From: a virus
Virus record (IMG/VR): IMGVR_UViG_3300036859_000430
Location: 1-48,291 of that record
DNA length: 48,291 nt
Strand: one strand, 5' to 3'
The notes beneath the pieces were generated by a model. It saw only the letters and a list, made by a program, of their open reading frames with translations, was not told the DNA's origin and ran no database searches. Positions 1-48,025 of this stretch are shown piece by piece (positions within the stretch are counted from its first letter, which is position 1; every line of letters starts with the position of its first letter). A program made the translations under genes and the position numbers.

Positions 1-256
1 GGACCAACGGTGTATCCAGCAAGTAATTGGCGTTCGGTTGAAGCTTTAGAACGTTATAGGGGGAGACGGTGGTCGAACCTGGACCGCATCCATCGGGAAC
101 GGATTGTATCCAAGCTGATAGTTGTGCTCCAGTAATTATTTCTATTGGAGCTGTTGCTATTTGAGCGGAGCAACTCTGAATAGCATTAACTCCAATAAGC
201 GCTCCGCCCAGAGTTAAGAGCCCAACAATCCAACTAACAGCGGCTTTCTTAGTCAT
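1..256 (-). CDS. exported beta-helix protein, N-terminal part (cut by window edge)
   Basis: This is the first 85 codons of the gene seen complete at 46865-48025, reading off the left edge. The start at 256 overlaps the stop of the holin-like gene by 8 bases. The hydrophobic N-terminus and the mature start match the right copy, but codon changes include Val to Ala in the QIVTAP segment (QIATAP here) caused by G156A. It is the same locus met a second time because the contig is circular, and not a truncated paralogue. Confidence 0.85.
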   Translation of the reverse strand, partial: MTKKAAVSWIVGLLTLGGALIGVNAIQSCSAQIATAPIEIITGAQLSAWIQSVPDGCGPGSTTVSPYNVLKLQPNANYLLDTPLV

Positions 257-522
257 TGGGCGTCTCTACGGTCCCATCAACCACATTAGCCGTCATCGGG
301 TCCGCAGGGTTACGCTGCTTTTTAGCCACAAAGAAAGTGACGACGGCCGCCCCCTTGGAGAACAACAGGAGCGCGGCACCCTGGACCTCTGGGTCGCTTA
401 GGCTGTTGAAGTCGAAGCCACCCTTGAGCAGCCCTGACAAAATCAGGACTGCGCCCACCACATCGCCCAGAGCTGATTGGAGTGTCTCAGCTGGGCGAGT
501 TCTAATCAATTCCAGTAGCTTT
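1..522. repeat. left copy of imperfect terminal direct repeat
   Basis: These 522 bases recur at the right end of the window with eight substitutions and no indels (left to right copy: T128C, G156A, A283G, G342A, T435C, T483C, A498G, A509G), all of them transitions. The repeat contains the start of the beta-helix gene and nearly all of the holin-like gene, so it is gene sequence seen twice and not a separate element. The simplest reading is that the contig runs once round a circular or circularly permuted genome and overlaps itself. The mismatches suggest that the two ends came from slightly different members of a phage population. Confidence 0.9.
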
Positions 523-22295: not shown

Positions 22296-22298
22296 TCG

Positions 22299-22314: not shown

Positions 22315-22334
22315 TACTGCACGGACCGTACGCC

Positions 22335-22414: not shown

Positions 22415-22466
22415 GATTCGGGGGTCGGGCGCGCGGCGGGCGCGCCCCGGGCGAAAGGCGGGCGGG

Positions 22467-22966: not shown

Positions 22967-23127
22967 CGGCGGGCGCGGCGCGGCCGGGCGGCGCGCGCCC
23001 GGGCGGCTCTCCGAACGGACGGACGCGGACACAGAGCGCCCGGACCACACGGGAGGAGAGCCGCCCGGGGGCGAGCAAGCCCAAGCGCGGCGGGGCGGCG
23101 CACCACAGCCCCGGACGGGAGGCCAAC

Positions 23128-23484: not shown

Positions 23485-23560
23485 GGCCCGACGGCTGCGG
23501 GCGCGGCTCCACAGAGCCGGGCCTGGAACCGGACGGACCGGAACCAGGAAGGAGGCGAAG

Positions 23561-30335: not shown

Positions 30336-30935
30336 ATGGATTCGTACCGATTGTTTAATTTGACCGCGCATACCGACGAGCGGGGATCATTCACCGAGGT
30401 ATTTCGCCAGACATGGACATATCCTCCATCGGGGCTGGAAGTACCCCCAGAGAACGACGAATGGCCTCAGGCCAACATCAGCCGCAGTCGCGCCGGAGTC
30501 CTTCGAGGTATGCATTTCCACAAGCAGCAATCGGATTGGTGGTACGTCGTAGACGGCAAGATGGAGATTGCCCTGTACGACCTCCGGATTGCCCAAGCCA
30601 AGCCTGAAATGGTTAGTCTGGGACAGCAGACAGCGCTACTTATTCCACCGCTGGTGGCGCATGGCTTCCTGGCCCTAACTGACGTAACTCTACTCTATCT
30701 TGTCTCCGATTATCACACCGGCAAGGACGAATTCGGCATTGCCTGGGACGACCCTGACATGGCAATCCCTTGGAGGGGAATCACCGACGAGCCACAATTC
30801 CATGGAGGCCCCGTCCTGTCCGAGCGTGACCGCACCAACCCGCCCCTGCGCGAAGTTCTCGAGATGGGCCTGGAACCAAGATGGGACTGGCACAATCTTG
30901 GGCCGGACGAAGATTCGCCAGCTACCCATTCGTAG
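30336..30935 (+). CDS. RmlC-like dTDP-4-keto sugar 3,5-epimerase
   Basis: 199 residues of the RmlC cupin family. The family signature is SRAGVLRGMHFHKQQSDWW with the catalytic base region His60 and His62, a second His in VAHGF (109), and the SDYHT...FGIAWDDP block around residues 124-139, where Tyr126 corresponds to the catalytic acid. These enzymes epimerise C3 and C5 of dTDP-4-keto-6-deoxyglucose on the way to dTDP-rhamnose or related sugars. The gene is the last of the early operon; it overlaps the opposite-strand gene by 14 bases at its end. Confidence 0.85.
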   Translation: MDSYRLFNLTAHTDERGSFTEVFRQTWTYPPSGLEVPPENDEWPQANISRSRAGVLRGMHFHKQQSDWWYVVDGKMEIALYDLRIAQAKPEMVSLGQQTALLIPPLVAHGFLALTDVTLLYLVSDYHTGKDEFGIAWDDPDMAIPWRGITDEPQFHGGPVLSERDRTNPPLREVLEMGLEPRWDWHNLGPDEDSPATHS

Positions 30936-31212: not shown

Positions 31213-32175
31213 CTAGAGCCAATCCTGGTTATCCAGGTACCACTGAACAGTCTGCTTGAGCCCCTGCTCAAAGGTTAGGGGAGCCCGCCACCCCCGCTGG
31301 CGAATATCGGTTCCGTCGATTCCGTAACGTTGATCATGGCCGGGTCGATCAGGGGCAACTAGCTCCACATGGAGTTCCCGACCCATACATTCTGCTATCC
31401 CAGTGGCTAGCTCCAGAGCACTGACTTCTCGTTCGCCTACAACGTGGAAATGGCTAGGATCGTTGGGCTTGTCGATCAGCCAGAGCAGAGCGTCGGCGAT
31501 GCATGCGGCATGAATATAGTACCGACTAACCGGACCGCCGGGACCAGTGTGTATTTGGACCGTCTCCCCATCACGGATTTTCCGAATCACCGTTGGCACG
31601 AACTTTTCCCTGTCCTGCATTTCTCCAATGATGTTCATAGTGCCTACCAAAGTTATCGACAATCCGTAGGTTTCACGGTACGCGATGGCGATATCCTCTT
31701 GCGCCGCCTTGGAGGCTGCATACGGATTGGTTGGATAATGACGATCGCCGGGCTGGAAATCGTACGTCCCTGGAGTGGGACCATAAACCTCAGAGGTAGA
31801 GACGTGTAGGATTTTGACAGGCTTCATAGCTCGAGCATGCTCCAAGATGGATAGCATGAGCGCCACATTGTTTTCGATGAACGGCCTGGGATCGGCGATG
31901 GATCGAGGGATGTGACTGCCGGAAGCCACGTTAATAATGCAATCATATGAGACCGGCCGGTAGAGCGGCTTAGTTAAATTCCAAGTCATAACATCCCATC
32001 GGCCGTTCAGTTTAGGAATCCCTCTACCATCGACCGGCAGCCGTCGCCTGTCCCCTTTTGTGGCGGGATTGAAACTATCCACCACATCTACGTGCCAATC
32101 GGTTTGTTCTAAAATGCATCTGAGCACATGTGATCCCAGGAACCCTCCCCCGCCCGTAAGCAAAACTCTCTTCAT
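31213..32175 (-). CDS. NAD-dependent sugar-nucleotide dehydratase/epimerase (RmlB-like)
   Basis: 320 residues of the extended SDR family. The Rossmann motif is GGGGFLGSH at 8-16; catalytic residues are in STSEVYG and the YAASK motif (Tyr-x-x-x-Lys), with the VASGSHIPRSI segment of RmlB-type enzymes. The usual product would be dTDP-4-keto-6-deoxyglucose; close relatives act as GDP- or UDP-sugar epimerases, so the exact substrate is not certain. With RmlC-like and the glycosyltransferase it makes a small sugar pathway. Normal length for the family. Confidence 0.85.
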   Translation of the reverse strand: MKRVLLTGGGGFLGSHVLRCILEQTDWHVDVVDSFNPATKGDRRRLPVDGRGIPKLNGRWDVMTWNLTKPLYRPVSYDCIINVASGSHIPRSIADPRPFIENNVALMLSILEHARAMKPVKILHVSTSEVYGPTPGTYDFQPGDRHYPTNPYAASKAAQEDIAIAYRETYGLSITLVGTMNIIGEMQDREKFVPTVIRKIRDGETVQIHTGPGGPVSRYYIHAACIADALLWLIDKPNDPSHFHVVGEREVSALELATGIAECMGRELHVELVAPDRPGHDQRYGIDGTDIRQRGWRAPLTFEQGLKQTVQWYLDNQDWL

Positions 32176-32904: not shown

Positions 32905-33423
32905 CTAATCGTGCGGTTTCCATCCCCGAACTGCATATTGATCCTTGGAGCCCCGATCGAACACCGGGAATGCTGGAGAAGTGTTGGCTATGTCTATTTC
33001 GGCTATGCCGATGAACCCTACCTGCCACACCATGAGCGCAATAAGTTGGGCGCTAGTATTCCATTGATGTAGACAGGGATTGCCTTCCCCCCCTTCCGTG
33101 ACTAGATTGGATTGGTGGCGCTCGGGCGACACGTGCCCTGTCGCTAGAAGCCGAGCGGATCGCTCTGCGTCCGGGCCGACTGCCAGGAAAGCCCCACCCG
33201 GCACCAAGACGCGCATTATTTCAATAAGAACGTATGCGACTTCCTCCTGTGGTACATGCTCAAGAAGATGACCCGCATAGACTCGCTCTGCGCTGTCCGA
33301 ACGGAAGGGCAAATGACGAACATCTGCTACCACATCAGGCAAAACGTCAGGTCTAATGTCAATATCGATCCAGGGAGTAGGAGCGTGACTCCATGGTTCC
33401 CCCGCGCCTAAGTTCAACATCAT
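32905..33423 (-). CDS. class I SAM-dependent methyltransferase
   Basis: 172 residues. Motif I is LNLGAGEPWSH at the N-terminus, motif II-like acidic end is DIDIRPDV, and the DVRHLPF plus HLLEHVPQEEV segments follow the Methyltransf_11 pattern (DLPF...EVLEH). It may act on a sugar, small molecule or protein; nothing points to DNA methylation. Given the sugar enzymes, methylation of a sugar is possible. Start overlaps the WhiB gene end by 4 bases. Confidence 0.75.
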   Translation of the reverse strand: MMLNLGAGEPWSHAPTPWIDIDIRPDVLPDVVADVRHLPFRSDSAERVYAGHLLEHVPQEEVAYVLIEIMRVLVPGGAFLAVGPDAERSARLLATGHVSPERHQSNLVTEGGEGNPCLHQWNTSAQLIALMVWQVGFIGIAEIDIANTSPAFPVFDRGSKDQYAVRGWKPHD

Positions 33424-33728
33424 CGATCAAGCAACTTCCGTAGGTCGTCAACTGAGGAGGATCGTCCCTTTCCCCACACCCGGATAGTAGTCTTTCGCTG
33501 GCTCTCGTCCATGCCTCCCCAGATGCCATCGACTGGATGATTTTCCAGCGCAAACTTCCCACATGGTCCCAATTCGGGGCAATTGATGCAGATACGTTTA
33601 GCCAACTTCACGGCTCGGATATCTCCCGGCTCCGGCACCATGTCCACGTCGGTGGATTTACAATTGGCTCGGGGCAGAACCGGCAGATTCGTCTTAGGGT
33701 ACCTAGTAAAATGTGGACTACCCTTCAT
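33420..33728 (-). CDS. whiB: WhiB-family iron-sulfur transcription factor
   Basis: 102 residues from the ATG at 33728 with GGAGG six bases upstream (the open frame continues upstream without a ribosome site). Cys23, Cys47, Cys50 and Cys56 (C-x23-C-x2-C-x5-C) are the cluster ligands, and GIWGG at 68-72 is the family turn. WhiB proteins are found only in Actinobacteria and their phages and bind the primary sigma factor. In mycobacteriophage TM4 such a protein blocks host division and superinfection; a comparable host-takeover role is likely here. It is the best single pointer to the host phylum. Confidence 0.93.
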   Translation of the reverse strand: MKGSPHFTRYPKTNLPVLPRANCKSTDVDMVPEPGDIRAVKLAKRICINCPELGPCGKFALENHPVDGIWGGMDESQRKTTIRVWGKGRSSSVDDLRKLLDR

Positions 33729-33730
33729 AT

Positions 33731-34132
33731 TTAACCTCCGTCTGTCCAATGCGCCGGGCGCACACAGGTTATTACTCCACACAGATTCCGGAGCCGCCCC
33801 GGTATACGCTCATGGGCTATGGCCCAAGCTACACGCTGAGCTAAAACGCGCTTCCCTCTCTGCACGGCGAATAGTCCGTACCCATCCTTACTTCGACCTC
33901 CCGTCCACAACCAATGTTGCTTAGTGGAGGGTTTGGTATCTTCCAACTGAACATGGATCATGAATCTTCGAGTCATGGCCTCGAGCGTCTTGTCCTCGTT
34001 GCGAATCAATTGATCTACAAGCAATCCTCCCGGACGGAGATTCCCCTCGTGCGCCTTGGCGTAATTGTAGTCAGCTGCGCACAGACCATTAGCTACAGCC
34101 GGAGCCATGCCACAATGAGAGCAATCAGCCAT
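33731..34132 (-). CDS. HNH-like protein with degenerate nuclease motif
   Basis: 133 residues from the ATG at 34132 (GGAGGG upstream). The N-terminus has a zinc pair (CSHCGMAPAVANGLC). The C-terminus follows the HNH endonuclease layout (HWLWTGGRSKDGYG, then RVAWAIAHERIPGRL, CVRPAHWTDGG), but the catalytic His of the usual 'HRVAW' is Gln (AQRVAW) and the 'LDHLC' is LRNLC, so the key histidines are lost. It may be an inactive homing-endonuclease relative kept as a DNA-binding protein. Confidence 0.65.
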   Translation of the reverse strand: MADCSHCGMAPAVANGLCAADYNYAKAHEGNLRPGGLLVDQLIRNEDKTLEAMTRRFMIHVQLEDTKPSTKQHWLWTGGRSKDGYGLFAVQRGKRVLAQRVAWAIAHERIPGRLRNLCGVITCVRPAHWTDGG

Positions 34133-34562: not shown

Positions 34563-34642
34563 AGTCCCCATCCAATGCCGATGAGTACCGCCCACAGAAT
34601 CAACGAAACAAGCAACAATAAAAGCCAGCGAAGCCCCGTCAC
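34535..34642 (-). CDS. 35-residue single-span membrane protein
   Basis: GTG start overlapping the stop of the fusion enzyme (GTGA). The product is almost entirely one membrane span, LRWLLLLLVSLILWAVLIGI followed by GWGLWQMV and a basic end. The 28-base overlap with the next gene is in another frame. Membrane microproteins of this size are often missed; role unknown. Confidence 0.55.
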   Translation of the reverse strand: MTGLRWLLLLLVSLILWAVLIGIGWGLWQMVKPLF

Positions 34643-35472
34643 AGCAGCTTCCCCCCGTGTCTATGCTCCCGCGTGTCGTTGTATGCAAGCTTCGCTTGCA
34701 GAGCTGATTCAAGATCGATGCTCCATTCGTTGCAAGCTCCGACCAGACGAATGAGCAGGTCAGCGAATTCGGACGGGATGCCTCCTGGCTTGGGAGGATC
34801 AGGGTGCTTCTGATAGTCGTCGCCGTAATACTGAGCCTCAAAATAACTGTGGTTGGGCGCGTTCCCCGCTCGGAGTTCCTCCAGTGCCTCAGACAACTCC
34901 GAGTGCATTAGAGCAATGTCGTCCCCGAAGGTGCGTCCGTCGTGCAGCCAGCCCTTGGCCTCCTGGAACTCGCGGACGCGGACTTGGAGCCCGGCAATGG
35001 TCATGGAGCCGACACGCTCTTCCACAGTTCCATCGAACTCAGGAAGAGGATCAGAATAAACCGTGGGGAAAGCTACTTGCTCCTCAAGCCATTCCGCCGC
35101 ACTGACCTCCCATCCCGGCTCGAACACCCGCACTCCTGGCCGCTCTGCTATGAATGGAGACTTGATCGGCCCTACCACAGCGACAGGCTTGCCAAAGATA
35201 ACAGCGCGCTCGATTTCCATGGGCACACCAGTGGATTGTCCTCCATCGCGCCAGTTGACAAACACGCAGTCGGCTTTATCCAGCGCCGCATGGTCAATTT
35301 CGCGGACGGTTTGGGGAGCCTGGACTCCGTTGTACCAACCCCAGTTGGGATCAAACACAGAGAATCCTCGCGACTTTAGAATCATCCGGATGCGGAAGTG
35401 CTCATTCCAGCTACCCCGCACCGGCTGTGCCTTGTCGATGGGCGACGCCAGATAGCAGACCTTACCGCTCAT
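34639..35472 (-). CDS. fusion of nucleoside 2-deoxyribosyltransferase-like and MazG-like domains (MazZ candidate)
   Basis: 277 residues from the ATG at 35472 (GGAGGAGAA upstream). Residues 1-105 follow the 2-deoxyribosyltransferase pattern: CYLASPID, then LDKADCVFVNW and GVPMEIERAVIFGKP, in which Glu86 fits the nucleophile. Residues about 157-275 form an all-alpha MazG-type NTP pyrophosphatase: HSELSEALEEL gives E192xxE195 and SEFADLLIR gives E235xxD238, the metal-binding pairs. In Z-genome phages MazZ makes dGMP for PurZ from dGTP; a tethered deoxyribosyltransferase could salvage or swap bases. It lies 735 bases downstream of PurZ in the same operon. Confidence 0.8.
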   Translation of the reverse strand: MSGKVCYLASPIDKAQPVRGSWNEHFRIRMILKSRGFSVFDPNWGWYNGVQAPQTVREIDHAALDKADCVFVNWRDGGQSTGVPMEIERAVIFGKPVAVVGPIKSPFIAERPGVRVFEPGWEVSAAEWLEEQVAFPTVYSDPLPEFDGTVEERVGSMTIAGLQVRVREFQEAKGWLHDGRTFGDDIALMHSELSEALEELRAGNAPNHSYFEAQYYGDDYQKHPDPPKPGGIPSEFADLLIRLVGACNEWSIDLESALQAKLAYNDTREHRHGGKLL

Positions 35473-35621
35473 TTCTCCTCCTTGATAAATACCCGGCTGC
35501 CGTCGATATACCATCGTTGCCCACCATCGAACTGCAGAAAGGTCATTTTCCCCTGGCGCACAACCTTGGCTTCCAATATTACCGTCTTACCGGTGGATAC
35601 TTGGCTTAGCTTCTTCTTCAC
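35469..35621 (-). CDS. 50-residue protein between MazG fusion and helical gene
   Basis: GTG start overlapping the previous stop (GTGA), and its TGA overlaps the next ATG (ATGA). The sequence KKLSQVSTGKTVILEAKVVR then FLQFDGGQRWYIDGSRVF is a compact beta-type fold with good composition. No family is recognised. Its exact fit between two genes supports it. Confidence 0.6.
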   Translation of the reverse strand: MKKKLSQVSTGKTVILEAKVVRQGKMTFLQFDGGQRWYIDGSRVFIKEEK

Positions 35622-36211
35622 GGCCACCGCCCCGTTTCCCTGATCCGCCGCGTCATGAGACTATAAACAGTCTCGTCCATGAGAGTGTCCTCGGAGGGCA
35701 AACGCCCTTCTCGATAGGCGGCCACTGCTCGCGCTACTTTCCCCAGGAGATAGAACTGACATGCAGCTTCCGCGCCCGACCCTTCCGGTAGCCCCAACCA
35801 GTGCTCCATGAACTGACCCATGAGGATTAGGTCGGAGGCGGTATATTCCCCGATTTTGTCCTCGATGGCATCGAAATCCTCAGCCGTGCGCTGTCTCCAC
35901 CAATCCTCAACCTTGAGGATATCCACCAGACGCTCGGATGCCTCGTCGGTAAACTCCTCGTCGCGATCCTGTGGTCCCAGTGATAGAGCAAGAGCGGCGG
36001 CAGCCTGCAGCATCGTCTTACCCTCAGCTGCCTGAATATAGAAATATTCAGCCATCTTCCCGCTGTCCCATCCGGCCGCTTCCGCTGCTTCCTGTATCTC
36101 GCGCACCGAGGCTCGACGCGACTCGGCGGGGAGGACCGCGTTGATTTTATTGACCCAATCCTCCATAATAGCCTGATGCGCAACGAACGCCTGCGCGACA
36201 CGCTGGCTCAT
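35618..36211 (-). CDS. all-helical protein next to purZ, possibly MazG/DUF1599-like
   Basis: 197 residues. The C-terminal half has GEYTASDLILMGQFMEHWLG, EAACQFYLLGKVARAVAAYR and PSEDTLMDETVYSLM, resembling the 'K-x-x-x-Y...Dtl-x-D-x-x-Y' pattern of all-alpha NTP pyrophosphatases or DUF1599-type nucleotide proteins. Catalytic acidic pairs are less clear than in the fusion enzyme. The N-terminus is helical (FVAHQAIMEDWVNKINAVL). Its start overlaps the purZ stop by 4 bases, so it may serve the same pathway, but the role is uncertain. Confidence 0.58.
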   Translation of the reverse strand: MSQRVAQAFVAHQAIMEDWVNKINAVLPAESRRASVREIQEAAEAAGWDSGKMAEYFYIQAAEGKTMLQAAAALALSLGPQDRDEEFTDEASERLVDILKVEDWWRQRTAEDFDAIEDKIGEYTASDLILMGQFMEHWLGLPEGSGAEAACQFYLLGKVARAVAAYREGRLPSEDTLMDETVYSLMTRRIRETGRWP

Positions 36212-37320
36212 GTTCGTCTCCTGTCGATGAGAGTGTACGGACTGGTACCGATCAGCGGAATGCTGCAGTCCCCCAGTCCCAATTCCACCATCCGCGATCC
36301 ATATGCCACGTGGGCCAGATCGGAAGAGTGCTCACGACCCACCAATTCCGGAAACCAGTGATCGAACATGGTCAGCACTACAAGTATCGGTCCTCTCGGT
36401 CCGCCGTTGGCTTGGATCGCCCTCTTTGCTAACACAGGGTCCCACATACCTACTCGTCGCAGCTTTTTTGTGACCGTGGTGTACTCCTCCGGTAGACCTA
36501 ATGCCTCCCAAGTCGTCTCCCCCAGTAATGGACCTGAATCCCCCGCCACCCGTATTGGGTAGGCGCGGAAGACAACCCAAATCTCGAGGTTGTAGCCCCA
36601 GGGATTCACTCCTGCCATAGCCAGGAAATCGATAGCGCGGCAGTCGATGGATGTGCAATAGGGGTAGTAACCCGCGTGCAGTCCGAGCCCGTAACCCTGG
36701 ACTCCCTCGATGATAACTGTACCGCCCCTCCGCAAATGCCCCTCGGCTATATCTGCTACATTACAGGTGAAACCCTCTACTAGCTTGGCTCGGCGCATGA
36801 TGCGTTCGGCTCTAGCTGCCCCTACGCCCTTCTGCGTCGAGCCTAGACGCTCCTGCATACCGCTCTCCTGATCTTTATGACGATTCTCCAGCATAGTGAC
36901 CTGGGAGTCCATAAAGAATCGACCGTTCAAGTTGCTCGGACCGACCTCTATAATCTCCTGCTCGAGGACGATTGGATCTACTTCTGATCCCGCCGCAATG
37001 TAACAGTCGGCCCCTGGATTGGTCACGGCTGCGACCGGCAACTGCCGAAAGGCGTACTTCCGATCCAATCGGCCCTTTCCCGTACAAAACGAACACGGGA
37101 ATGGACTAGAATCATAATCCTCTGTAGTGCGTTCATCCACCCAGCCTCTACCTTTACATTCAGGACAGTCTTCCTCAACGTACACCGTGTGCCCCGCATT
37201 AGGTCCGCCCACACGGACGGCCATCAGCTTGTCTCCCTCCTGAGCGGAGAGGTAGCCCGCAATGGCTCCCTTTCCCTCGGAGCCGAATTGGCCTCCCACG
37301 ACTACGATCACCTTACCCAT
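36208..37320 (-). CDS. purZ: PurZ: 2-aminoadenylosuccinate synthetase (Z-genome enzyme) with zinc-finger insertion
   Basis: 370 residues of the PurA family. The N-terminal P-loop-like motif is GGQFGSEGKG; Ser14 stands where E. coli PurA has its catalytic Asp (GTQWGDEGKG), the exchange that defines PurZ. PurZ joins Asp to dGMP on the route to dZTP (2,6-diaminopurine). Further family blocks are GGPNAGHTV (38-46), GSTQKGVGAARAERI, IIEGVQGYGLGLH, TVTKKLRRVGMWD and LTMFDH. Residues about 48-87 are an insertion carrying CPECKGRG and CSFCTGKG, two DnaJ-type CxxCxGxG zinc motifs not part of the PurA core. The stop overlaps the 197-residue gene. Confidence 0.88.
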   Translation of the reverse strand: MGKVIVVVGGQFGSEGKGAIAGYLSAQEGDKLMAVRVGGPNAGHTVYVEEDCPECKGRGWVDERTTEDYDSSPFPCSFCTGKGRLDRKYAFRQLPVAAVTNPGADCYIAAGSEVDPIVLEQEIIEVGPSNLNGRFFMDSQVTMLENRHKDQESGMQERLGSTQKGVGAARAERIMRRAKLVEGFTCNVADIAEGHLRRGGTVIIEGVQGYGLGLHAGYYPYCTSIDCRAIDFLAMAGVNPWGYNLEIWVVFRAYPIRVAGDSGPLLGETTWEALGLPEEYTTVTKKLRRVGMWDPVLAKRAIQANGGPRGPILVVLTMFDHWFPELVGREHSSDLAHVAYGSRMVELGLGDCSIPLIGTSPYTLIDRRRT

Positions 37321-37808
37321 GCTATCTCCCTATCTCCCTGTGCCCAGGTCTTAGGCACCATGCCGTGCTGGAACAGATACCACAGCAAATGCATTTCCGC
37401 CGCCGACATATCCTTGTATTTGGTGCGCCGCTGGAATGCGTCGCCAAAAATAGGTTCTAAGCCTTTGGCGCGGCACTTGGCGAACGCTGCTTTCATGACG
37501 GATGCATTTTGCACCTCCAGTGCTTTTATTCGCGGATCAGTGGTATGCAAATATTTCAACACTCCAATAACTTGCGGAGCCGGTAGCTCATCAAAGCCCT
37601 TTTTGACCGCCCAAGGATATAACCAGTACCGTTCGTAGATGAGTGCCGTGATGGACAGGTCGCGAGCCCACCGCTTAATTATCGCGTAGGCCGGATCGGG
37701 CTCCACCTGAGCGAATTCCAGCGAACCCTTACTAATATGCTCCGGGCCTCCCACCAGGCGAGCCAGACCGCACATACCACCTGGGTCCACAGCTACTAGA
37801 TGCAGCAT
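37308..37808 (-). CDS. RuvC-like Holliday junction resolvase
   Basis: 166 residues of RNase-H fold. The first acidic residue is in LVAVDPGGMCGLA, the second in TALIYERYW, and a later one in the MSAAEMHLLWYL helix. Phage RuvC-like enzymes cut branched replication intermediates before packaging. It overlaps purZ by 13 bases. The substrate is inferred from the family. Confidence 0.72.
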   Translation of the reverse strand: MLHLVAVDPGGMCGLARLVGGPEHISKGSLEFAQVEPDPAYAIIKRWARDLSITALIYERYWLYPWAVKKGFDELPAPQVIGVLKYLHTTDPRIKALEVQNASVMKAAFAKCRAKGLEPIFGDAFQRRTKYKDMSAAEMHLLWYLFQHGMVPKTWAQGDREIAWVR

Positions 37809-38054
37809 TTATACCTTGTCCCCTTTGCTCAGTATCTCCTTACGAGCGACCTGTCGTAAATGATGGATTACTCCCCGCTTAGTCCAACCAAACCATCGTA
37901 TGGTCTCCTCGCCTATACTATATCCAGTGCGCGTGTTGAACGCAGTCAAGGTGACTATTCCAACCCAGCGAATGGGCACTCGTATTCCCCAGAGACGACC
38001 CTTTCCTCTGACTCTCCAAACGGATGAATAGGTTAGCCGCCATTCTATTGCCAT
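37809..38054 (-). CDS. small protein between polymerase and resolvase
   Basis: 81 residues, basic and aromatic (RVRGKGRLWGIRVPIRWVGI, then GEETIRWFGWTKRGVIHHLR). The last part could form a helix-turn-helix-like segment. It overlaps the polymerase gene end by 10 bases. Unknown function, perhaps a polymerase accessory factor or DNA-binding protein. Confidence 0.58.
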   Translation of the reverse strand: MAIEWRLTYSSVWRVRGKGRLWGIRVPIRWVGIVTLTAFNTRTGYSIGEETIRWFGWTKRGVIHHLRQVARKEILSKGDKV

Positions 38055-39892
38055 GGCTTAACCTCCACCTGCATAGGTACCCCGAGCATACGGGTTCCAA
38101 TCGATTCCCCGAGTCGAGCAGCCAACTTAACCGCGCCAAAATGGCGGGTTTCCATCACCAGCGAGTCGTGGATAGTGAGAACGAGTGTACCGGGCCACCG
38201 ATCTTCCACTTGGATCATCCAATCCTTCATTAATTCCGCCAGCGAACCCTGGACCCGCTGGTTGAACGCCTTGTGGAAGTCCTCCCACGCCGCGAACCAC
38301 CGTATACGCCCGTTGGCCAGCCTCAACCAACCCTTCTTTTCCGCAAGCTTGTGGTCCCGATAGACCGCCCGCTTATACTCCGGATATAGCGCCCGCCAGT
38401 CGTTTACAATAGTCTGACATTCAGGGAGTTCCAAGTAGATATCGGCGAGTTTGGCCAGCGTGGCCTGGAAGGTCTCTGCTCCCACATCAAAGATGAATGC
38501 GAAGTCGCCGCGCTTGCCAATCTGTCGATGCTCGAACCAGCAGGGCTGACTAGAATCGCAGCCAAACAATTGATGGGCAACCTCACCATGGATATCCGCG
38601 CCCTTTGCCACCATGTCGAGCATGGTCTGACAGCCAGCCATCCGAGCAGCACAACGTAGCTCCGCTTGCTCCAGGTCAAGTTCCCAAAGGCGCGTTGATA
38701 CACGACGACGAATCGGTAAACCGCTTCCGCCGCCCGATTGAAAGAGACTCCTGACGCTCGGAACGCGCTCGACCAGCCTACCAAGTTGATAGTTGTGCGG
38801 GATGGCCTGGAGGTTAACTCTCTCCGCCGAAAGTCTGCCACTGACAACCCGAGCCTGTTTATACCGAGTTCTAAGCCTTCCGTCTCCATTGCACGCCTCC
38901 GCGTAGGGCTTATACCACTTGGTCTTGGCAGTACGTATCTTGCGAATTAGCTGGAATTCCGCTGCGAGTGGAACCTTCGCGCTCACTAGTCGCGACACCT
39001 GCTGTGCGTCCAACTTCGGCTTCCCGGTGTCGGTCAATGTGGACATAACTTCGGGAGCCTTTTGATAGAACCACCGCCGCGCTGACTCTATAGACGGATT
39101 GAAGGGTAATTCTCTAACGATTTCCCGCTCCCACTGATCCAGAGCGCTGTAAGCAGCCCAAGAGCGCTCTGCGTTGTACCCAATCCCTCGAGTTTCGAGT
39201 TCCAAAAGTGTAAGCATGAGTCGGAATTCGCGACGGAGGAGAGAGTACGATGCCTCTCCCTGCTCGAATCGGTCCATCTGCTGATAACAATTCCTAATAG
39301 TAAGGTCGGCGTCTCCAGCCGCATAAGGATGAATAATCTCCCAGGGCAGTAGATCGTACCGCCCCTGCGGAATGCGCGCCTCCCCGATGGCTGCGCGTAC
39401 CGCATCCTCAAATTCGCGCTCTCCGCCACCCCACACAGAGAGTCGCTGAGAAGTTTCTTTCAGTCCGGACGACTCGGTAGGATCAAGGTCCCGGGCTCCG
39501 AGCATGCCGTCCCAGAGGAACGTGGATCGGAGGTCATATCCAGGGAAATGTCGAGTACCCGCCCGCAGAAGGAGCAGATCAAAATAAGCGTTCCACCAGG
39601 CAGTCCTACGTCGAAGGAGCCAATCCATGAGTGTATGCCATTCTTCCTCCGGCAGATTGGGGTCATCCTCGAACATTTCGATCTGAGGGAATTTGTCGCG
39701 CCGACCTTGATCGAAGGGGAATGCATGGGATATGACCTCCTCTCCTTCAAACCAGGCGACCGATACTACGGCCACGCGGGCTCCGTCGTCGGGGAACAGT
39801 CCCGACGTCTCCGTGTCTACCGCGACGGGGACCTCAATTTCGGGCAGATTGCTGGGCAGCAAAATAGGGGCTGCAGTAGCGGTTTTAGCCAT
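38045..39892 (-). CDS. polA: family A DNA polymerase, Klenow type (DpoZ candidate)
   Basis: 615 residues. The 3'-5' exonuclease is intact: Asp26 and Glu28 (AVDTETSG), Asn101/Asp105 (NAYFDLLLL), and Tyr190/Asp194 (YAAGDADL). Polymerase motif A is ELDLEQAELR with Asp406, motif B has Arg456, Lys460 and Phe464 in RQIGKRGDFAF, and motif C is TIHDSLVME with Asp576. The usual Glu after the catalytic Asp (HDE) is Ser577. There is no 5'-3' exonuclease domain. In Z-genome phages a PolA relative of this kind (DpoZ) prefers dZTP over dATP; that preference here is an inference from purZ in the same operon. Confidence 0.88.
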   Translation of the reverse strand: MAKTATAAPILLPSNLPEIEVPVAVDTETSGLFPDDGARVAVVSVAWFEGEEVISHAFPFDQGRRDKFPQIEMFEDDPNLPEEEWHTLMDWLLRRRTAWWNAYFDLLLLRAGTRHFPGYDLRSTFLWDGMLGARDLDPTESSGLKETSQRLSVWGGGEREFEDAVRAAIGEARIPQGRYDLLPWEIIHPYAAGDADLTIRNCYQQMDRFEQGEASYSLLRREFRLMLTLLELETRGIGYNAERSWAAYSALDQWEREIVRELPFNPSIESARRWFYQKAPEVMSTLTDTGKPKLDAQQVSRLVSAKVPLAAEFQLIRKIRTAKTKWYKPYAEACNGDGRLRTRYKQARVVSGRLSAERVNLQAIPHNYQLGRLVERVPSVRSLFQSGGGSGLPIRRRVSTRLWELDLEQAELRCAARMAGCQTMLDMVAKGADIHGEVAHQLFGCDSSQPCWFEHRQIGKRGDFAFIFDVGAETFQATLAKLADIYLELPECQTIVNDWRALYPEYKRAVYRDHKLAEKKGWLRLANGRIRWFAAWEDFHKAFNQRVQGSLAELMKDWMIQVEDRWPGTLVLTIHDSLVMETRHFGAVKLAARLGESIGTRMLGVPMQVEVKPWQ

Positions 39893-39979: not shown

Positions 39980-40110
39980 TGACACAGTTGACACATTGAC
40001 ACAGGGCCTCCGACCGGCTCATCTTTGTGTCAGCCTTGTGTCAGTGTGTCTGCCCTTGCTCATCGGCAAGTGCTCTGTGTCAGCCCCGTTGTCAGCCCCC
40101 TCTGACACCC
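39980..40110. repeat. cluster of TGACACA / TGTGTCA repeats (candidate origin iterons)
   Basis: Three copies of TGACACA at 39980, 39989 and 39997 face three TGTGTCA copies at 40026, 40037 and 40076, plus near copies at 40045 (TGTGTCT), 40089 and 40102. They straddle the gap between PrimPol and polymerase genes and the end of the PrimPol coding region. Short direct and inverted repeats beside replication genes are typical of phage origins, but binding-site clusters for a regulator would look the same. Confidence 0.55.
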
Positions 40111-42514
40111 CGGTTGACCGCTCCAACACCCTCGCGGCTACCTCTCCTGAAATTCCCCAATACCGCGCGTAGAGCTTGCTGGCTGACAATCTGAACATCT
40201 TCCCATCCCGAAGCCCCTGAATGTCTAAGGCGTGAGCCTGCTGTCGGATGGCCTCCTCCGAGTCCACTCGGGGATCGAGCCGATAGCCCTCTCTCCGCTT
40301 GATCCACTCCGCCAAATACCCCGGATGGAACCAGATGATGCCCTCTTGGACGAAAGCTGGGGTGGGTGGGTCGCGGTCCACGGCGGCTCGAGGACTATTG
40401 ATTAGTCCGGTGTACATGAGCGCCCGAGGAAGGTGCTCTAGGGTGAGCTTGTTCTCGTTCCCCATCGGGGCGTTCCTCTTAGCCTCTACAATCCAGGATT
40501 CTAGCGTATCAGACACATCCAATCCAGACAACTTCTCCAAGACCGACGCACCAGTTCGGAGGATCGCCCATTTATCCTCCTCTCGGCCGCTTCCCTCTCG
40601 GCGGCTAGGCAAGTCGAGAACATCCCGCCGACAGGTGAGCGCCCTGGACAATAGCCACCCGGAATAGTTAGCCAATCGCGGGTGCTGTAGCCGGAACTCT
40701 ACAATCCGATCCCACTGGTAGCGGCCGTCGGACATTTTCCGTTCCTTGGGTGAGGGAACATCTAGCAGGATCATGCGGTCTATTAGCGCTTTCTCTCCAG
40801 ACAATCCCGTCGTTTCACCGGATACCACCATCGGCCCAACCAGCCGAATGGAATCTTGAGTAAAGTCGGTAGATTTCTTGTGCATCGTTCCTTCGACTGT
40901 AACCTGCCGGATCAGCGCATGCAGATTCTCTGGCCGGTTGGTGTCATCCACCCACACTATGCCGATGCGGTTGCTGGCAAGAGCGTCTCTAAGGGCAGCA
41001 GATGTAAAGTCCCCGGGGTCCATCCGCCCATTTAGCTCCATCATGGCTCGGAAGAAGCCGGTGGTTTTGCCCGATTCCGAAGACGCCTGGATGCCCATGA
41101 CAGGGAACTGGGAGGTTATAGGCGCGATCCAGAACTTTACTAGACAAGCCGCCCACCAGGACCCAAACACCGCTACGACCGTATCGTCGTGCCAGGTCAG
41201 GACCTCCCGTAGTACCGCCGTCGCGTCCTCCGGCCCCCCCTCGAACGCGTACGACCATCCTGGGTCCCGGGGCCGTACGATCACCGGCTGTGTCTCCGCA
41301 GCGCCTCCGTTGGGACGAACTAGCCCGTCGGCGGTCACGTACCCGCCCAGCGCCTCAGACCAATCCAGCCAGTGATAGGGCTCGAGCAGCGGCGGATGCT
41401 GAGATTCTAGATAACGTACTAATCGGTCGGTCGCGCGTCCTTGAGCCGTCTTGACAGCGGCGGGTCCCAGACTATAGCCGCCCGCGACATACAATGCGGC
41501 GTTCAATTTGTTCAGATTAGCCAAGGTGTTACCGTCGAGCAGCCTGGAAACGCGGTGTCCGTTCCCGTCGTCTAGATTTACTTGGTATCCAACGTCGGCG
41601 GCGAATCCTACCGCCTCCACGTCGAAGTAGGCGAAAATTTCTCGACCCCCGCCCTTTACTATGGAATACAGACGCTTCCCATCGCCAATAAGTCCTCCAG
41701 CATCAGCAGGAGGATGGGTAGAATGCTCCGACTGCCACACCGACTTGAGCATCTTTGAGACTTCGCTCTCCGGCAAAGACTCGGACAGCAACCCAGCGGC
41801 CAGGCGTACGTGAACTACGTACGCGTCCTCTTTGTCGCGGAACAACTTGGCATAGTGACCGGCCACTCGAGTCAGCCAATCGTTGCGTCCGCCTTTCTCC
41901 GCCGGTGCTTGAATCAGCGCCGAGAGTTGGGACCTCCGCGCGCCCTCCCCTGAGGAGCCGCTTGAGATTCCACTATCGGATATGCCCTCGGCGCTGATTA
42001 AAACATCGGGCAGTGGCTGAATATGGTCCAGATCGCGAACCCACCGATAGCGCCTACCTGTCTCGTGAACCGAGGGAGGAACGATTACGCCGGTACCTTC
42101 CGCCCTCAGGTCGAAGTGTATAGGGTCCTCGTGGTTCCCCCACGAACGCACTTCTTGTCCAGTTGCGATCGTAAACCAGAAATGCTTGCCCTTTCCGGTG
42201 GTAGACGAAGTAGTACCGTCCAGGTCCACACCCTGACCGATCCAATATTCCTCAGCCTCCTTCGAATCTACATCAAGGACCGCCACCCCACTGACGGAGC
42301 CGGTGACGACGAAAAGATTCTTGTCCCCTCCCTTGAACCACCTGTGTATCTCCACTTCGGTAGACATGCGCCGAATATACGGCTTCCATGTTTTAAGTTG
42401 TGGCGTCTTGTCTTTGTACCTAGCAGGGAGTACGCAGAGCCCTGCTGCGTGTAGTCGCAGCGCTTCGTCAAGCAGCGAGGGGGCGCGTGTAGCACCCCCC
42501 CGCTTCTCGGGCAT
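40019..42514 (-). CDS. PrimPol-helicase (bifunctional primase/polymerase with SF3-like ATPase)
   Basis: 831 residues. Residues about 14-190 form a Prim-Pol (AEP) domain: LPARYKDKTPQLKTWKPY, the VAVLDVDS motif with Asp81 and Asp83, GKGKHFWF with His111, and the FDLRAEGTGVIVPPSV block with Asp135. After a linker, residues about 430-700 hold a P-loop ATPase: Walker A ASSESGKTT (477-485) and Walker B IGIVWVDDTNR (517-527). The C-terminal part (about 720-800) is a winged-helix-like region. The protein probably primes and unwinds DNA. PrimPols also occur in the Z-DNA cyanophage S-2L. The last codons lie in the repeat cluster. Confidence 0.85.
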   Translation of the reverse strand: MPEKRGGATRAPSLLDEALRLHAAGLCVLPARYKDKTPQLKTWKPYIRRMSTEVEIHRWFKGGDKNLFVVTGSVSGVAVLDVDSKEAEEYWIGQGVDLDGTTSSTTGKGKHFWFTIATGQEVRSWGNHEDPIHFDLRAEGTGVIVPPSVHETGRRYRWVRDLDHIQPLPDVLISAEGISDSGISSGSSGEGARRSQLSALIQAPAEKGGRNDWLTRVAGHYAKLFRDKEDAYVVHVRLAAGLLSESLPESEVSKMLKSVWQSEHSTHPPADAGGLIGDGKRLYSIVKGGGREIFAYFDVEAVGFAADVGYQVNLDDGNGHRVSRLLDGNTLANLNKLNAALYVAGGYSLGPAAVKTAQGRATDRLVRYLESQHPPLLEPYHWLDWSEALGGYVTADGLVRPNGGAAETQPVIVRPRDPGWSYAFEGGPEDATAVLREVLTWHDDTVVAVFGSWWAACLVKFWIAPITSQFPVMGIQASSESGKTTGFFRAMMELNGRMDPGDFTSAALRDALASNRIGIVWVDDTNRPENLHALIRQVTVEGTMHKKSTDFTQDSIRLVGPMVVSGETTGLSGEKALIDRMILLDVPSPKERKMSDGRYQWDRIVEFRLQHPRLANYSGWLLSRALTCRRDVLDLPSRREGSGREEDKWAILRTGASVLEKLSGLDVSDTLESWIVEAKRNAPMGNENKLTLEHLPRALMYTGLINSPRAAVDRDPPTPAFVQEGIIWFHPGYLAEWIKRREGYRLDPRVDSEEAIRQQAHALDIQGLRDGKMFRLSASKLYARYWGISGEVAARVLERSTGVSEGADNGADTEHLPMSKGRHTDTRLTQR

Positions 42515-42532: not shown

Positions 42533-43039
42533 CTAGGCCCGCGCTGCCGCTCTCTGCTTGCCTCGAACCGGCTTTGTGGGCTCCGGTTCCGGCTCGGGCG
42601 TAGAGCCCCCACTCTCGTCCATCAGTGGGAACAGGTTAGCCACGTTATTGCCGATCTGGCCCGCTCGGGGACCTTTCTCGATCACCCGCTGCTCCATGTA
42701 GAGCCTAATCTTCTCCCCGATGAGGTCATCCGTGTCGGTGTCGGCCGGGACTCCGAATGCCTGGAACGTCTCAGCCATCTTGAACTCGGACTTAGGCGAC
42801 AAGGATGTAACGTGGAATGCGCTCCCCGGGACGGTGGAGGTTGGGTTATCCCAATCCTCGTCGTCCGCCGCGAAAAGCTCCGAGAAAATCCAGGTCCAGA
42901 ATGGATAACCCGAGTCTCCCGGCTGGTCAGAAACTCGGACCTCCATAAGAGTCCCGACGTACATCCCCTCTTCCAAGGGAGGGAAACTACCGTCGTTATC
43001 CTCGACTCGCTTGGCTTGCTCCTTATCCAACTTAGGCAT
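42533..43039 (-). CDS. putative single-strand DNA-binding protein (DUF669-like)
   Basis: 168 residues with an OB-like beta-rich body: PPLEEGMYVGTLMEVRV, FWTWIFSELF, LIGEKIRLYMEQRVIEKGP and a basic Pro-rich tail (PEPEPEPTKPVRGKQRAAA). Arrangement and position between a Sak4-like ATPase and the PrimPol fit a DUF669-type phage SSB-like protein. The acidic tail typical of SSB is replaced by a basic one. Its start overlaps the ATPase gene by 8 bases. Confidence 0.65.
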   Translation of the reverse strand: MPKLDKEQAKRVEDNDGSFPPLEEGMYVGTLMEVRVSDQPGDSGYPFWTWIFSELFAADDEDWDNPTSTVPGSAFHVTSLSPKSEFKMAETFQAFGVPADTDTDDLIGEKIRLYMEQRVIEKGPRAGQIGNNVANLFPLMDESGGSTPEPEPEPTKPVRGKQRAAARA

Positions 43040-43934: not shown

Positions 43935-44167
43935 CAGATGGCCTCCGCCAGATCGGTGTCTTGTGTGGCCACTTGAAATCCACATTGAGCGCAACGAACC
44001 GTAGCGGCATAGGTCCGCTCTTCTACCCGAGTGGTACTGAAATTGACCCACATCCAGATGCTGTCCACCAGGACGTACTGACCGTGGTCCCGCTCTACTG
44101 TGCGCGTCTCCCGCCTACGATGGAACTGACCGTGCCCACACTTAGGACACTTCCGATCCACTTGCAA
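43934..44167 (-). CDS. small zinc-ribbon protein of the recombination cluster
   Basis: 77 residues with CPKCGHGQFHRRRE near the start and RCAQCGFQVA near the end, a clean C-x2-C...C-x2-C ribbon. It sits between the Cas4-like nuclease and the Sak4-like ATPase and is coupled to both. It may load or recruit one of them. Role unknown. Confidence 0.65.
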   Translation of the reverse strand: MQVDRKCPKCGHGQFHRRRETRTVERDHGQYVLVDSIWMWVNFSTTRVEERTYAATVRCAQCGFQVATQDTDLAEAI

Positions 44168-45068
44168 CCTCCTCTCTCCCCGGCTCGGTCAAGTATCCCC
44201 GAGTCCGCCAGTGCTCGGCCTCGCTTAGTTGTGCGAAGCCCTTTGCCCGAAGGAACGTAACCTCATCGACCCCCTTCCTCCCCGCTAAGCAGGGCTCAGT
44301 AAAAGGACACCGCCACCGACACCGCTCGGAATCGGGAGCCCGGGGCGCGTCGTCGGCGCTGATCGAGTATGCCGTCTTGAATGTACGATACGCTTCGACA
44401 GCGATGGTCTTTAGTTCCTTGTCGGTGCGATACAAGCGGGTTCGAGAGAACCGCTCCTCCAGCGGCTGAGGGACGACTTTATTACGCTGGGTGCGAGCGG
44501 CGGAATAGATAATCCCGAACACCGGCACGCCCTGCCGCTTCAATCCCCCATTGTACAGGCCCATTTGATCATCGAGGTCGAGTTCCCTATCACTAGGAAG
44601 GTTCTGCCCACTCTTGTGATCCACGACAAAGATTTTTGGCTTAATAAATGATCGATCGCGAACTACCAAGTCTATCCGGCGTCTAAGCACGAACCGGGAG
44701 GGGAATCCTCGAGGAGTCAATAATCGCTGCCGACCCTGCTCTTCGATCGCCATAATTTCCCATTGATCGTCGTTCCCCCAACGCTCCACGTGTCCATCGT
44801 ACATCCAGCCTAGAAGTTGGGTCGTCTCCTCATCCGTATCCGATTCCATCAGATACTCGGCTACCGATTGCATACGAGCCATTTCCGTAGAGCCGTCCTT
44901 GATGTGCCCGTAGTGGATTTCCATCACCTTGTGCCATCGGAGTCCTATCCCCAAGGCCCGACCGACGGAAGGACTCGCCCAGAGGAATCGATAGGCCAGG
45001 GCGTGCTTGTGGGGACACTGACGATAGGCGTCGAGTTCGGAGTAAGAAACTTCTATTGTTCTAGCCAT
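44142..45068 (-). CDS. Cas4/RecB-like PD-(D/E)XK exonuclease with Fe-S cluster
   Basis: 308 residues. Nuclease motifs: Glu/His region with WHKVME (His46), Asp133 (RRIDLVVRD), the D-H-K triad Asp150-His151-Lys152 (VVDHKSGQN) and Gln168. Cys18 (YRQCPHKHALAY) together with Cys250, Cys254 and Cys260 (ERCRWRCPFTEPC) are the four ligands of the iron-sulfur cluster of Cas4/AddB-type enzymes. It probably resects DNA ends for recombination with the Sak4-like ATPase. There is no CRISPR array. Confidence 0.85.
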   Translation of the reverse strand: MARTIEVSYSELDAYRQCPHKHALAYRFLWASPSVGRALGIGLRWHKVMEIHYGHIKDGSTEMARMQSVAEYLMESDTDEETTQLLGWMYDGHVERWGNDDQWEIMAIEEQGRQRLLTPRGFPSRFVLRRRIDLVVRDRSFIKPKIFVVDHKSGQNLPSDRELDLDDQMGLYNGGLKRQGVPVFGIIYSAARTQRNKVVPQPLEERFSRTRLYRTDKELKTIAVEAYRTFKTAYSISADDAPRAPDSERCRWRCPFTEPCLAGRKGVDEVTFLRAKGFAQLSEAEHWRTRGYLTEPGREEVASGSEVS

Positions 45069-46864: not shown

Positions 46865-48025
46865 CTAAATGAACTTGTTACCCGACTCCACGTAATCTGA
46901 ACTAATGGGTAGCACAACTTGGTGCGCTCGCACGAAGCGATTATTCAGTATCTGTACTCCGATGGAATTCTCGAGTCGGACTCCGTACACAATTGGGAAC
47001 TGGATTTTCGCCCAGGATACGACGTTACCCTCGATCGTTACGTCCTGTGCTCCTCGGAATCGGAGTCCGAATTGTCCATAAAGGTCGATCAGAGTGTTGC
47101 GAACGATAGTAAATGGGCCTCGCCGAGCGCACCCGAACGGCGTCTTAACCTCAATTCTGGAAAGATTGGTAGCTCGGCCCGAGATTTCCATCACATTGTC
47201 GGCCACGACGATATTCTTCATTCCTCGGTTACATAGGCCACCCATCGGCAGCCAAACTAGCCAGACGTTCCGAGTTCGATTACGCAGAATCTTAATGTCG
47301 TTAGTGGTAAGGGACGCATATTCGGGCTCAATGTCAAAGATAGAATATCCAGTAGGCCCAAGTACGTTGTCCTGGAATGTAATCCTATCTCCGGTAACGA
47401 TTGCCAACGACATGCGACCATTCCCCGCGAAGGTGGAGTTCTGCACCGTTATGTCGCTGGGTTGAAGGTCCGTAGGATTGCAGCCATCGTGTGGACCACA
47501 AGCTTGCACAATTAGTCCATCACCGTAAGCATTCAATCCCGTGATGCCGTCTACGAGAACGAACGTGGAACCCTCGATGTGGATGTTATGGCCCCACTGG
47601 TAAGCGGATACGAAGGTCCCTGGAATAGGATGATTACCGACGATCTTCAGGTTTTTAAAAACCAGATGATCGCCCCGCTTTAGAAGCAATTGTCGTTTGC
47701 CAGGAGCTTGGCGGGTCCCATCGAGCGTGGCTCCGTTCCCTTCGAATCTTAGCCAATGACGCAGACTTAGGACCAACGGTGTATCCAGCAAGTAATTGGC
47801 GTTCGGTTGAAGCTTTAGAACGTTATAGGGGGAGACGGTGGTCGAACCTGGACCGCATCCATCGGGAACGGATTGTATCCAAGCTGATAGTTGTGCCCCA
47901 GTAATTATTTCTATTGGAGCTGTTACTATTTGAGCGGAGCAACTCTGAATAGCATTAACTCCAATAAGCGCTCCGCCCAGAGTTAAGAGCCCAACAATCC
48001 AACTAACAGCGGCTTTCTTAGTCAT
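46865..48025 (-). CDS. exported right-handed beta-helix protein (last late gene)
   Basis: 386 residues. The N-terminus (AAVSWIVGLLTLGGALIGVN, then AIQSCSAQ) is a signal peptide or anchor. The rest is a right-handed parallel beta-helix of pectate-lyase type with many coils that end in N-x-x-x-x-G or I-x-x-N (HIEGSTFVLVDGI, FQDNVLGPTGYS, VADNVMEISG, IEGNVVSWAKI). The lack of the usual depolymerase active-site pattern leaves its chemistry open. Located directly after the holin-like gene, it may digest or bind a host surface polymer from the outside, or act in lysis. Its start overlaps the holin-like stop by 8 bases. Confidence 0.75.
   Translation of the reverse strand: MTKKAAVSWIVGLLTLGGALIGVNAIQSCSAQIVTAPIEIITGAQLSAWIQSVPDGCGPGSTTVSPYNVLKLQPNANYLLDTPLVLSLRHWLRFEGNGATLDGTRQAPGKRQLLLKRGDHLVFKNLKIVGNHPIPGTFVSAYQWGHNIHIEGSTFVLVDGITGLNAYGDGLIVQACGPHDGCNPTDLQPSDITVQNSTFAGNGRMSLAIVTGDRITFQDNVLGPTGYSIFDIEPEYASLTTNDIKILRNRTRNVWLVWLPMGGLCNRGMKNIVVADNVMEISGRATNLSRIEVKTPFGCARRGPFTIVRNTLIDLYGQFGLRFRGAQDVTIEGNVVSWAKIQFPIVYGVRLENSIGVQILNNRFVRAHQVVLPISSDYVESGNKFI

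What the first reader, a model, noticed from the sequence alone, without database searches (positions are those of the whole stretch)
36208..37320. A PurZ-type enzyme predicts a 2-aminoadenine (Z) genome in an actinophage
The PurA homologue has GGQFGSEGKG, with Ser14 at the position of E. coli PurA's catalytic Asp. This exchange is the published signature of PurZ (phages PhiVC8, SH-Ab 15497, S-2L), which starts dZTP synthesis from dGMP. The same operon also holds a MazG-family enzyme and a Klenow-type polymerase, as in known Z phages. Z DNA pairs with T by three hydrogen bonds and evades many restriction enzymes.
Basis: partly seen in the sequence, partly recalled or inferred. Interest (0 to 1): 0.92.

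Follow-up and report, generated by a model that had tools for sequence, protein, structure and literature searches.

The report
PurZ phage with DmtZ–MazG fusion
This actinobacterial virus carries the known gene set for building its DNA with 2-aminoadenine (Z) instead of adenine, but one standard helper enzyme (DutZ) is missing and a different enzyme domain (MazG) sits in its place, a combination not described in the papers held here.

Summary
ORF 36208-37320(-) is an intact 370-aa PurA homologue with Ser14 at the catalytic Asp. It falls in the phage PurZ0 clade (34 rows, support 100/100), far from PurA, and scores 296 bits on NCBI's PurZ model (cut-off 300; 201 on the closest PurA model). Gene order matches the Z-phage Wayne, and the neighbouring polymerase carries the Tyr-to-Phe change shared by Z-polymerases. 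A Z genome is very likely; the chemistry was not measured.

Ser14 alone does not prove it: 67 of 80 chromosomal PurA-like loci recovered also carry Ser there.

What is new lies beside purZ. (1) The "MazG" gene is a DmtZ-like deoxyribosyltransferase fused to a MazG domain. All 98 published PurZ0 genomes keep DutZ. Here DutZ, DatZ and DUF5664 are absent from an apparently complete genome (522-bp terminal repeat). Two other records also lack DutZ; their NDT domain is fused to another helical domain. (2) The gene directly after purZ belongs to an unnamed family found next to purZ in nearly all non-Arthrobacter PurZ0 loci examined. Its closest structural analogues outside the family are, weakly, nucleotide-modification domains (DUF6378/Nmad1).

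Verdict: known kind, new variant.

The parts
36208..37320 (-). purZ (PurZ0 type): dGMP + Asp + nucleoside triphosphate -> N6-succino-2-amino-dAMP (inferred)
   Evidence: PHROG 1211, NF038379, 7vf6; PurZ0 clade 100/100
37279..37281 (-). codon of Ser14, the position of the PurA catalytic Asp
   Evidence: alignments A1, A3 and E. coli PurA column
37060..37173 (-). 38-aa insertion in PurZ with CPEC...CSFC (possible zinc knuckle); the site is variable in other PurZ0, often with CPxxC
   Evidence: zinc binding is inference
35618..36211 (-). 197-aa gene overlapping the end of purZ; unnamed family conserved next to purZ in non-Arthrobacter PurZ0 phages; C-terminal ~95 aa conserved
   Evidence: no Pfam/PHROG family (51, 52); weak structural similarity to DUF6378/Nmad1 (118)
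35469..35627 (-). small ORF (about 52 aa, GTG start) overlapping the start of the fusion gene; function unknown
34639..35472 (-). DmtZ-like/MazG fusion gene, 277 aa; likely start ATG 35472 with AAGGAGG just upstream (the ORF can extend to 35514)
35065..35472 (-). DmtZ-like (NDT/DNPH1 fold) domain, about aa 1-136
   Evidence: 27% identity to Wayne DmtZ-DutZ N-terminus; DNPH1/MilB fold (90); Y/P/D/P/E residues kept, N77 equivalent is Asp (115)
34639..35025 (-). MazG-type pyrophosphohydrolase domain with ELSE...EFAD metal motif, about aa 150-277
   Evidence: PHROG 3301 E 1e-33; hhalign to SH-Ab 15497 DUF550/MazZ segment 89.5%, E 2e-6 (88); motif (115)
37308..37808 (-). 166-aa gene of unknown function between polymerase region and purZ
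   Evidence: homologue in L002; no phage-record match (30)
38045..39892 (-). dpoZ-like family-A DNA polymerase with 3'-5' exonuclease domain
   Evidence: NF038381 DpoZ_2 346 bits, cut-off 350; motif B FIF, exo DEDYD, HDS
40019..42514 (-). primase-polymerase, syntenic with Wayne gp45
   Evidence: Prim-Pol, PriCT_1, phrog_5177
42533..43039 (-). conserved 168-aa gene, syntenic in Wayne, Galactica, L002, L003
43032..44051 (-). Sak4-like AAA annealing protein
   Evidence: PF13479, phrog_124
44142..45068 (-). PD-(D/E)XK exonuclease
   Evidence: PF12705, phrog_1218
1..522 (.). terminal repeat, copy 1 (98.5% identical to copy 2): the contig probably spans the whole genome
47770..48291 (.). terminal repeat, copy 2

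Best explanation
This is the genome of an actinobacteriophage whose virion DNA probably contains 2-aminoadenine (Z) in place of adenine. Inferred steps: PurZ condenses dGMP with aspartate to dSMP; host PurB and host kinases (no phage PurB found) carry it to dZTP; the DpoZ-type polymerase prefers dZTP over dATP. The nucleotide pool is handled by one bifunctional protein. Its MazG domain hydrolyses dATP (and probably dGTP) to dAMP and dGMP, giving PurZ its substrate. Its DmtZ-like domain destroys dAMP to adenine, or transfers its sugar phosphate to free Z base to make dZMP. The MazG domain thus takes the place of the DutZ enzyme that all previously described PurZ0 phages encode. Shown by sequence: family membership of purZ, polymerase signature, the fusion, the absence of DutZ, DatZ and DUF5664. 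Inferred: all enzyme activities and the Z content. Likelihood: PurZ activity and Z genome about 0.92; MazG domain doing DutZ's job about 0.65.
For: PurZ tree: window inside 34 phage PurZ0 rows, 100/100, apart from E. coli PurA and from cellular Ser-type proteins. NCBIfam: window PurZ 296 vs closest PurA model 201 bits; reference PurZ0 proteins 346-367 (Wayne, Galactica, Ghobes), IMG/VR relatives L016 325 and L097 300; two cellular Ser-type proteins score 233 and 237 on PurZ and higher (259, 264) on PurA. Synteny with Wayne: exonuclease, Sak4, 168-aa gene, PrimPol, Pol, PurZ, then NDT fusion. DpoZ_2 346 bits; Tyr766-to-Phe as in Wayne, Ghobes, Goodman; this change is reported as the only mutation common to both DpoZ clades (PMC8599892). 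DmtZ residues Tyr6, Asp12, Pro57, Glu103 kept in 80/80 NDT domains including the window; roles measured or modelled in PMC12884076. MazG motif and similarity to the SH-Ab MazZ-type segment. dUTPase absent in window, G001 (L016) and G002 (L097), present in the 19 other records tested. WhiB gene points to an actinobacterial host.
Against: No chemistry of the virion DNA. PurZ and DpoZ scores lie just under the curated cut-offs (296/300, 346/350). The catalytic Asn77 of DmtZ is Asp here, a change that cut dAMP hydrolysis about 100-fold in the Ghobes enzyme, though Asp is usual in NDT hydrolases. The MazG domain was modelled poorly (pLDDT about 40-70), so its substrate cannot be read from structure and is inferred only.
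Confidence: 0.85

Rival explanations
1. The PurZ/Z-genome reading holds, but the MazG domain is a general house-cleaning or dUTP-removing enzyme, and dATP exclusion rests on DpoZ alone.
For: All-alpha NTP pyrophosphatases include dUTPases (own knowledge); MazG genes closest to this one occur in phages not known for Z-DNA, such as Microbacterium phage Nike. DutZ itself still hydrolyses dUTP (PMC12884076), so a simple dUTPase replacement would also fill the gap.
Against: It is fused to the DmtZ-like domain at the same place and order as DutZ in Wayne, which suggests a channelled dATP to dAMP step; it resembles the MazZ-type segment of SH-Ab 15497.
Confidence: 0.3
2. The gene is a canonical PurA kept by the phage to raise adenine nucleotide supply.
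For: Same fold and most catalytic residues.
Against: Catalytic Asp replaced by Ser; PurA signature around Arg303 (GRR) replaced by KK as in PurZ; phylogeny; PurA models far below cut-off.
Confidence: 0.02
3. The gene is one of the chromosomal Ser-type PurA-like proteins picked up by a phage, with a function other than Z-DNA.
For: Those proteins share the motif GGQFGSEGKG exactly.
Against: They form groups outside the phage PurZ0 clade, and two tested score higher on PurA than on PurZ models; the window has the DpoZ-type polymerase and the Wayne gene order.
Confidence: 0.04

Closest known systems
Arthrobacter phage Wayne (Korravirus, PurZ0/DpoZ; enzymes studied in PMC12884076)
   Same: Gene order of the replication module; PurZ0; DpoZ; N-terminal DmtZ domain in a fusion protein
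   Different: Wayne has DmtZ-DutZ and a DUF5664 dATP/dGTP hydrolase after purZ; the window has DmtZ-like/MazG and the unnamed 197-aa gene
Gordonia phages Ghobes and Archimedes (PurZ0; 7vf6 is the Archimedes enzyme according to PMC12884076)
   Same: PurZ0; unnamed gene directly after purZ; DmtZ
   Different: Separate dmtZ and dutZ genes; Ghobes has a purB-like gene; the window has neither dutZ nor purB
Streptomyces phages Galactica, Hiyaa, Keanu
   Same: Closest named PurZ by identity (46-49%); unnamed gene after purZ; fused DmtZ
   Different: DmtZ fused to DutZ; phage purB-like gene; polymerase motif B keeps Tyr in Galactica
Acinetobacter phage SH-Ab 15497 and PhiVC8-like phages (PurZ/DatZ/MazZ)
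   Same: Ser-type PurZ; a MazG-superfamily enzyme
   Different: Other PurZ lineage (28% identity); DatZ present; DUF5664-DUF550 in SH-Ab rather than DmtZ-like/MazG

Membership tests
PurZ/PurZ0 (2-amino-dAMP succinate synthase) | Ser in place of the PurA catalytic Asp | tested here: met
   necessary, not sufficient
PurZ/PurZ0 (2-amino-dAMP succinate synthase) | phylogenetic place in the phage PurZ0 clade | tested here: met
   34 rows, 100/100
PurZ/PurZ0 (2-amino-dAMP succinate synthase) | score on NCBIfam NF038379 at or above 300 | tested here: inconclusive
   296.2; relatives 300-367; two cellular Ser-type 233-237; the window carries a 38-aa insertion
PurZ/PurZ0 (2-amino-dAMP succinate synthase) | uses dGMP and Asp to make dSMP | not testable with these tools
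   needs a purified enzyme
DpoZ polymerase (Wayne-like) | Tyr to Phe in motif B with intact exonuclease and polymerase residues | tested here: met
DpoZ polymerase (Wayne-like) | score on NF038381 at or above 350 | tested here: inconclusive
   346; Galactica, L016 and L097 score 202-296
DpoZ polymerase (Wayne-like) | prefers dZTP over dATP | not testable with these tools
   needs a purified enzyme
DmtZ (NDT family) | Tyr6, Asp12, Pro57, Glu103 (Ghobes numbering) | tested here: met
   80/80 including window
DmtZ (NDT family) | Asn77 | tested here: not met
   Asp in the window, His in L097; Asn in 77/80. I therefore call the domain DmtZ-like
DmtZ (NDT family) | DNPH1/NDT fold | tested here: met
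   pLDDT about 80-96 in most of this domain; best PDB hits MilB and DNPH1, TM about 0.66-0.72 by target
DutZ | dUTPase-family trimer domain | tested here: not met
   PF00692 absent from the record; tblastn with two DutZ proteins negative
MazG/MazZ pyrophosphohydrolase | ExxE...ExxD metal motif and family profile | tested here: met
   no Pfam MazG hit
DUF5664 | 197-aa gene after purZ belongs to DUF5664 as in Wayne | tested here: not met
   hhalign no similarity; Wayne DUF5664 tblastn negative

The most novel reading that the evidence does not exclude
In this lineage DutZ has been displaced by a MazG domain fused to a DmtZ-like domain (and by another helical domain in two relatives), and the unnamed gene after purZ is a further, general component of PurZ0-type Z synthesis: a small nucleotide-modification-associated (DUF6378/Nmad1-like) protein acting on the Z nucleotide pool.
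Probability: 0.45. Interest if true: 0.65.

Novelty: new variant of a known kind. Interest (0 to 1): 0.5.

Why it matters
Z phages are one of the few natural cases of a base fully replaced in a genome. The dNTP-pool enzymes that make this possible appear to be swapped freely between lineages. A DutZ-less PurZ0 phage shows which function is needed rather than which protein, and it supplies a single bifunctional enzyme to test. The gene next to purZ is present in nearly all non-Arthrobacter PurZ0 loci examined yet has no name or assigned function, so it is a direct target for anyone rebuilding Z-DNA synthesis. The chromosomal Ser-type proteins warn against calling Z genomes from the Ser signature alone.

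Tried and rejected
Megablast of the region against phage records: no match. Single-sequence searches for the fusion and for its MazG domain in IMG/VR: none. I first suspected that the 197-aa gene is a distant DUF5664 or MazG protein; profile comparison gave no support, and its model had no significant PDB match; only weak structural similarity to DUF6378/Nmad1 proteins remained. I first read the C-terminal domains of L016 and L097 as MazG; hhalign does not support that, and both match a family of unknown function (PHROG 2831), so I do not call them MazG. DatZ, PurB, DutZ and DUF5664 were sought in the window and not found. No tRNA or Rfam family. No promoter or terminator excess. PADLOC: no defence-family match for PurZ, the 197-aa gene or the fusion.

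Full report
OBSERVATION. The ORF at 36208-37320, minus strand, is intact, 370 aa, and sits in an operon-like run of overlapping genes. It carries GGQFGSEGKG at residues 9-18. In alignments with known PurZ proteins and with E. coli PurA, Ser14 falls in the column of the catalytic Asp; Lys16, His41, Gln224 and the other checked residues are kept, and the PurA GRR signature near Arg303 is KK, as in PurZ. Family scores: PHROG 1211 (PurZ) E 9.6e-74; NF038379 PurZ 296.2 bits (cut-off 300); best PurA model 201 bits (cut-off 368); closest solved structure 7vf6, E 3.7e-71.

IS IT PURZ? A tree of 65 PurZ/PurA proteins puts the window among 34 phage PurZ0 proteins with 100/100 support. Calibration of the NCBI model: Wayne, Galactica and Ghobes 346-367 bits, the nearest IMG/VR relatives L016 and L097 325 and 300, the window 296, two chromosomal Ser-type proteins 233 and 237, the latter scoring higher on a PurA model. 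The window's slight shortfall may reflect a 38-residue insertion with CPEC and CSFC (possible zinc knuckle; inference); the same site is variable in other PurZ0 proteins and often holds CPxxC.

SER14 ALONE IS NOT PROOF. A scan of one genome for each of 84,980 prokaryote species with a PurZ alignment returned 80 best loci, in bacterial and archaeal records; 67 have Ser at this position, mostly in the motif GGQFGSEGKG. The scan patterns favour Ser, so this is not a frequency estimate. These proteins lie outside the phage PurZ0 clade. The case for Z-DNA therefore rests on the clade, the polymerase and the gene order, not on Ser14.

POLYMERASE AND SYNTENY. Gene order exonuclease, Sak4, 168-aa gene, PrimPol, polymerase, PurZ matches phage Wayne. 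The polymerase scores 346 bits on DpoZ_2 (cut-off 350). Its motif B reads FIF where E. coli Pol I has LIY; [quoted passage not shown] Galactica, a phage with PurZ0, keeps Tyr, so the mark is not universal. Exonuclease (DEDYD) and polymerase residues are intact.

THE FUSION. The gene 34639-35514 very probably starts at 35472 (AAGGAGG just upstream). Residues 1-136 match the DmtZ half of Wayne's DmtZ-DutZ (27%, E 2.6e-9 against that locus) and model as a DNPH1/MilB fold. DmtZ residues Tyr6, Asp12, Pro57 and Glu103 are kept in all 80 NDT domains aligned, the window included; Asn77 is Asp in the window and His in L097. In Ghobes DmtZ, N77D lowers dAMP hydrolysis about 100-fold (PMC12884076). Residues 150-277 are a MazG domain: PHROG 3301 E 1e-33, motif ELSE...EFAD, profile match to the DUF550/MazZ segment of SH-Ab 15497 (89.5%, E 2e-6).

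DUTZ IS MISSING. PMC12884076 reports dutZ in all 98 PurZ0 genomes and dmtZ in 85 of them. Of 22 records tested here, 19 have a dUTPase; the window, L016's record and L097's record do not, and in these three the NDT domain has another C-terminal partner. In L016 and L097 that partner matches PHROG 2831 (unknown function) and was not shown to be MazG. L016's record is only 20 kb. The window has near-identical 522-bp ends (98.5%), so it probably spans the whole genome, although IMG/VR does not class it as closed. DatZ, PurB and DUF5664 were also not found.

THE GENE AFTER PURZ. The 197-aa gene has a conserved C-terminal ~95 aa. tblastn finds it in 31 of 50,697 phage records, in the same genera and numbers as the non-Arthrobacter PurZ0 phages (Microbacterium 18, Gordonia 6, Streptomyces 5). 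A profile search found it in the window and in all nine other non-Arthrobacter PurZ0 phages tested and in none of 13 others (Wayne, SH-Ab, VP2, five phages without known Z genes, five bacterial genomes). It is close to purZ in 78 of the 80 IMG/VR loci recovered by PurZ, L088 and L093 being the exceptions. It has no Pfam or PHROG family, and no profile similarity to DUF5664 or MazG. Beyond its own members, the structural matches that carry names are repeatedly DUF6378 and nucleotide modification associated domain proteins, some at high probability but all with poor E-values (0.4 to 3). This is suggestive only.

MODEL. Shown: family membership, domain layout, absences. Inferred: PurZ makes dSMP from dGMP; host PurB and kinases make dZTP; DpoZ uses it; MazG converts dATP and dGTP to monophosphates; the DmtZ-like domain removes dAMP or recycles Z base. 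Host: a WhiB gene and the named relatives point to Actinomycetota.

NOVELTY. Z phages, PurZ0, DpoZ and DmtZ are known. A PurZ0 phage without DutZ, with a DmtZ-like/MazG fusion, was not found in the papers held; subscription papers, including the original PurZ0 paper, could not be read, so this is limited. I rate it a new variant of a known kind.

Noticed in passing
L148-L227, e.g. L173 5995-8152, L158 2471-4503: Chromosomal PurA-like proteins (about 345 aa, Ser for the catalytic Asp) in diverse bacteria and archaea are usually accompanied by a dCTP-deaminase/dUTPase-like gene: 58 of 67 Ser-type loci, 56 on the same strand with a median overlap of 3 bases, against 0 of 10 Asp-type loci. A type I restriction-type gene lies nearby in some (L173, L219). 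It echoes phage PurZ0 plus DutZ; possibly an uncharacterised cellular two-gene system. One three-term paper search gave nothing relevant.
   Followed up: partly
L016 10442-11095; L097 9524-10177: The two closest relatives also lack dUTPase and have an NDT domain fused to a C-terminal domain of PHROG 2831, unknown function.
   Followed up: partly
22200-24000: A stretch of about 72% G+C with GC-rich tandem repeats (22480-22672) beside the terminase genes, in a genome of about 55% G+C; possible regulatory region or assembly artefact.
   Followed up: no
30336-30935 (+), 31213-32175 (-), 32905-33423 (-): dTDP-4-dehydrorhamnose 3,5-epimerase, NAD-dependent sugar epimerase/dehydratase and a methyltransferase: possible sugar modification of host surface or virion.
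   Followed up: no
33420-33782 (-): WhiB-like transcription factor, indicating an actinobacterial host.
   Followed up: partly
1-522 and 47770-48291: Near-identical terminal repeats (98.5%), although IMG/VR classes the record as not closed.
   Followed up: partly
46865-48025 (-): Beta-helix protein resembling tail spike proteins.
   Followed up: no
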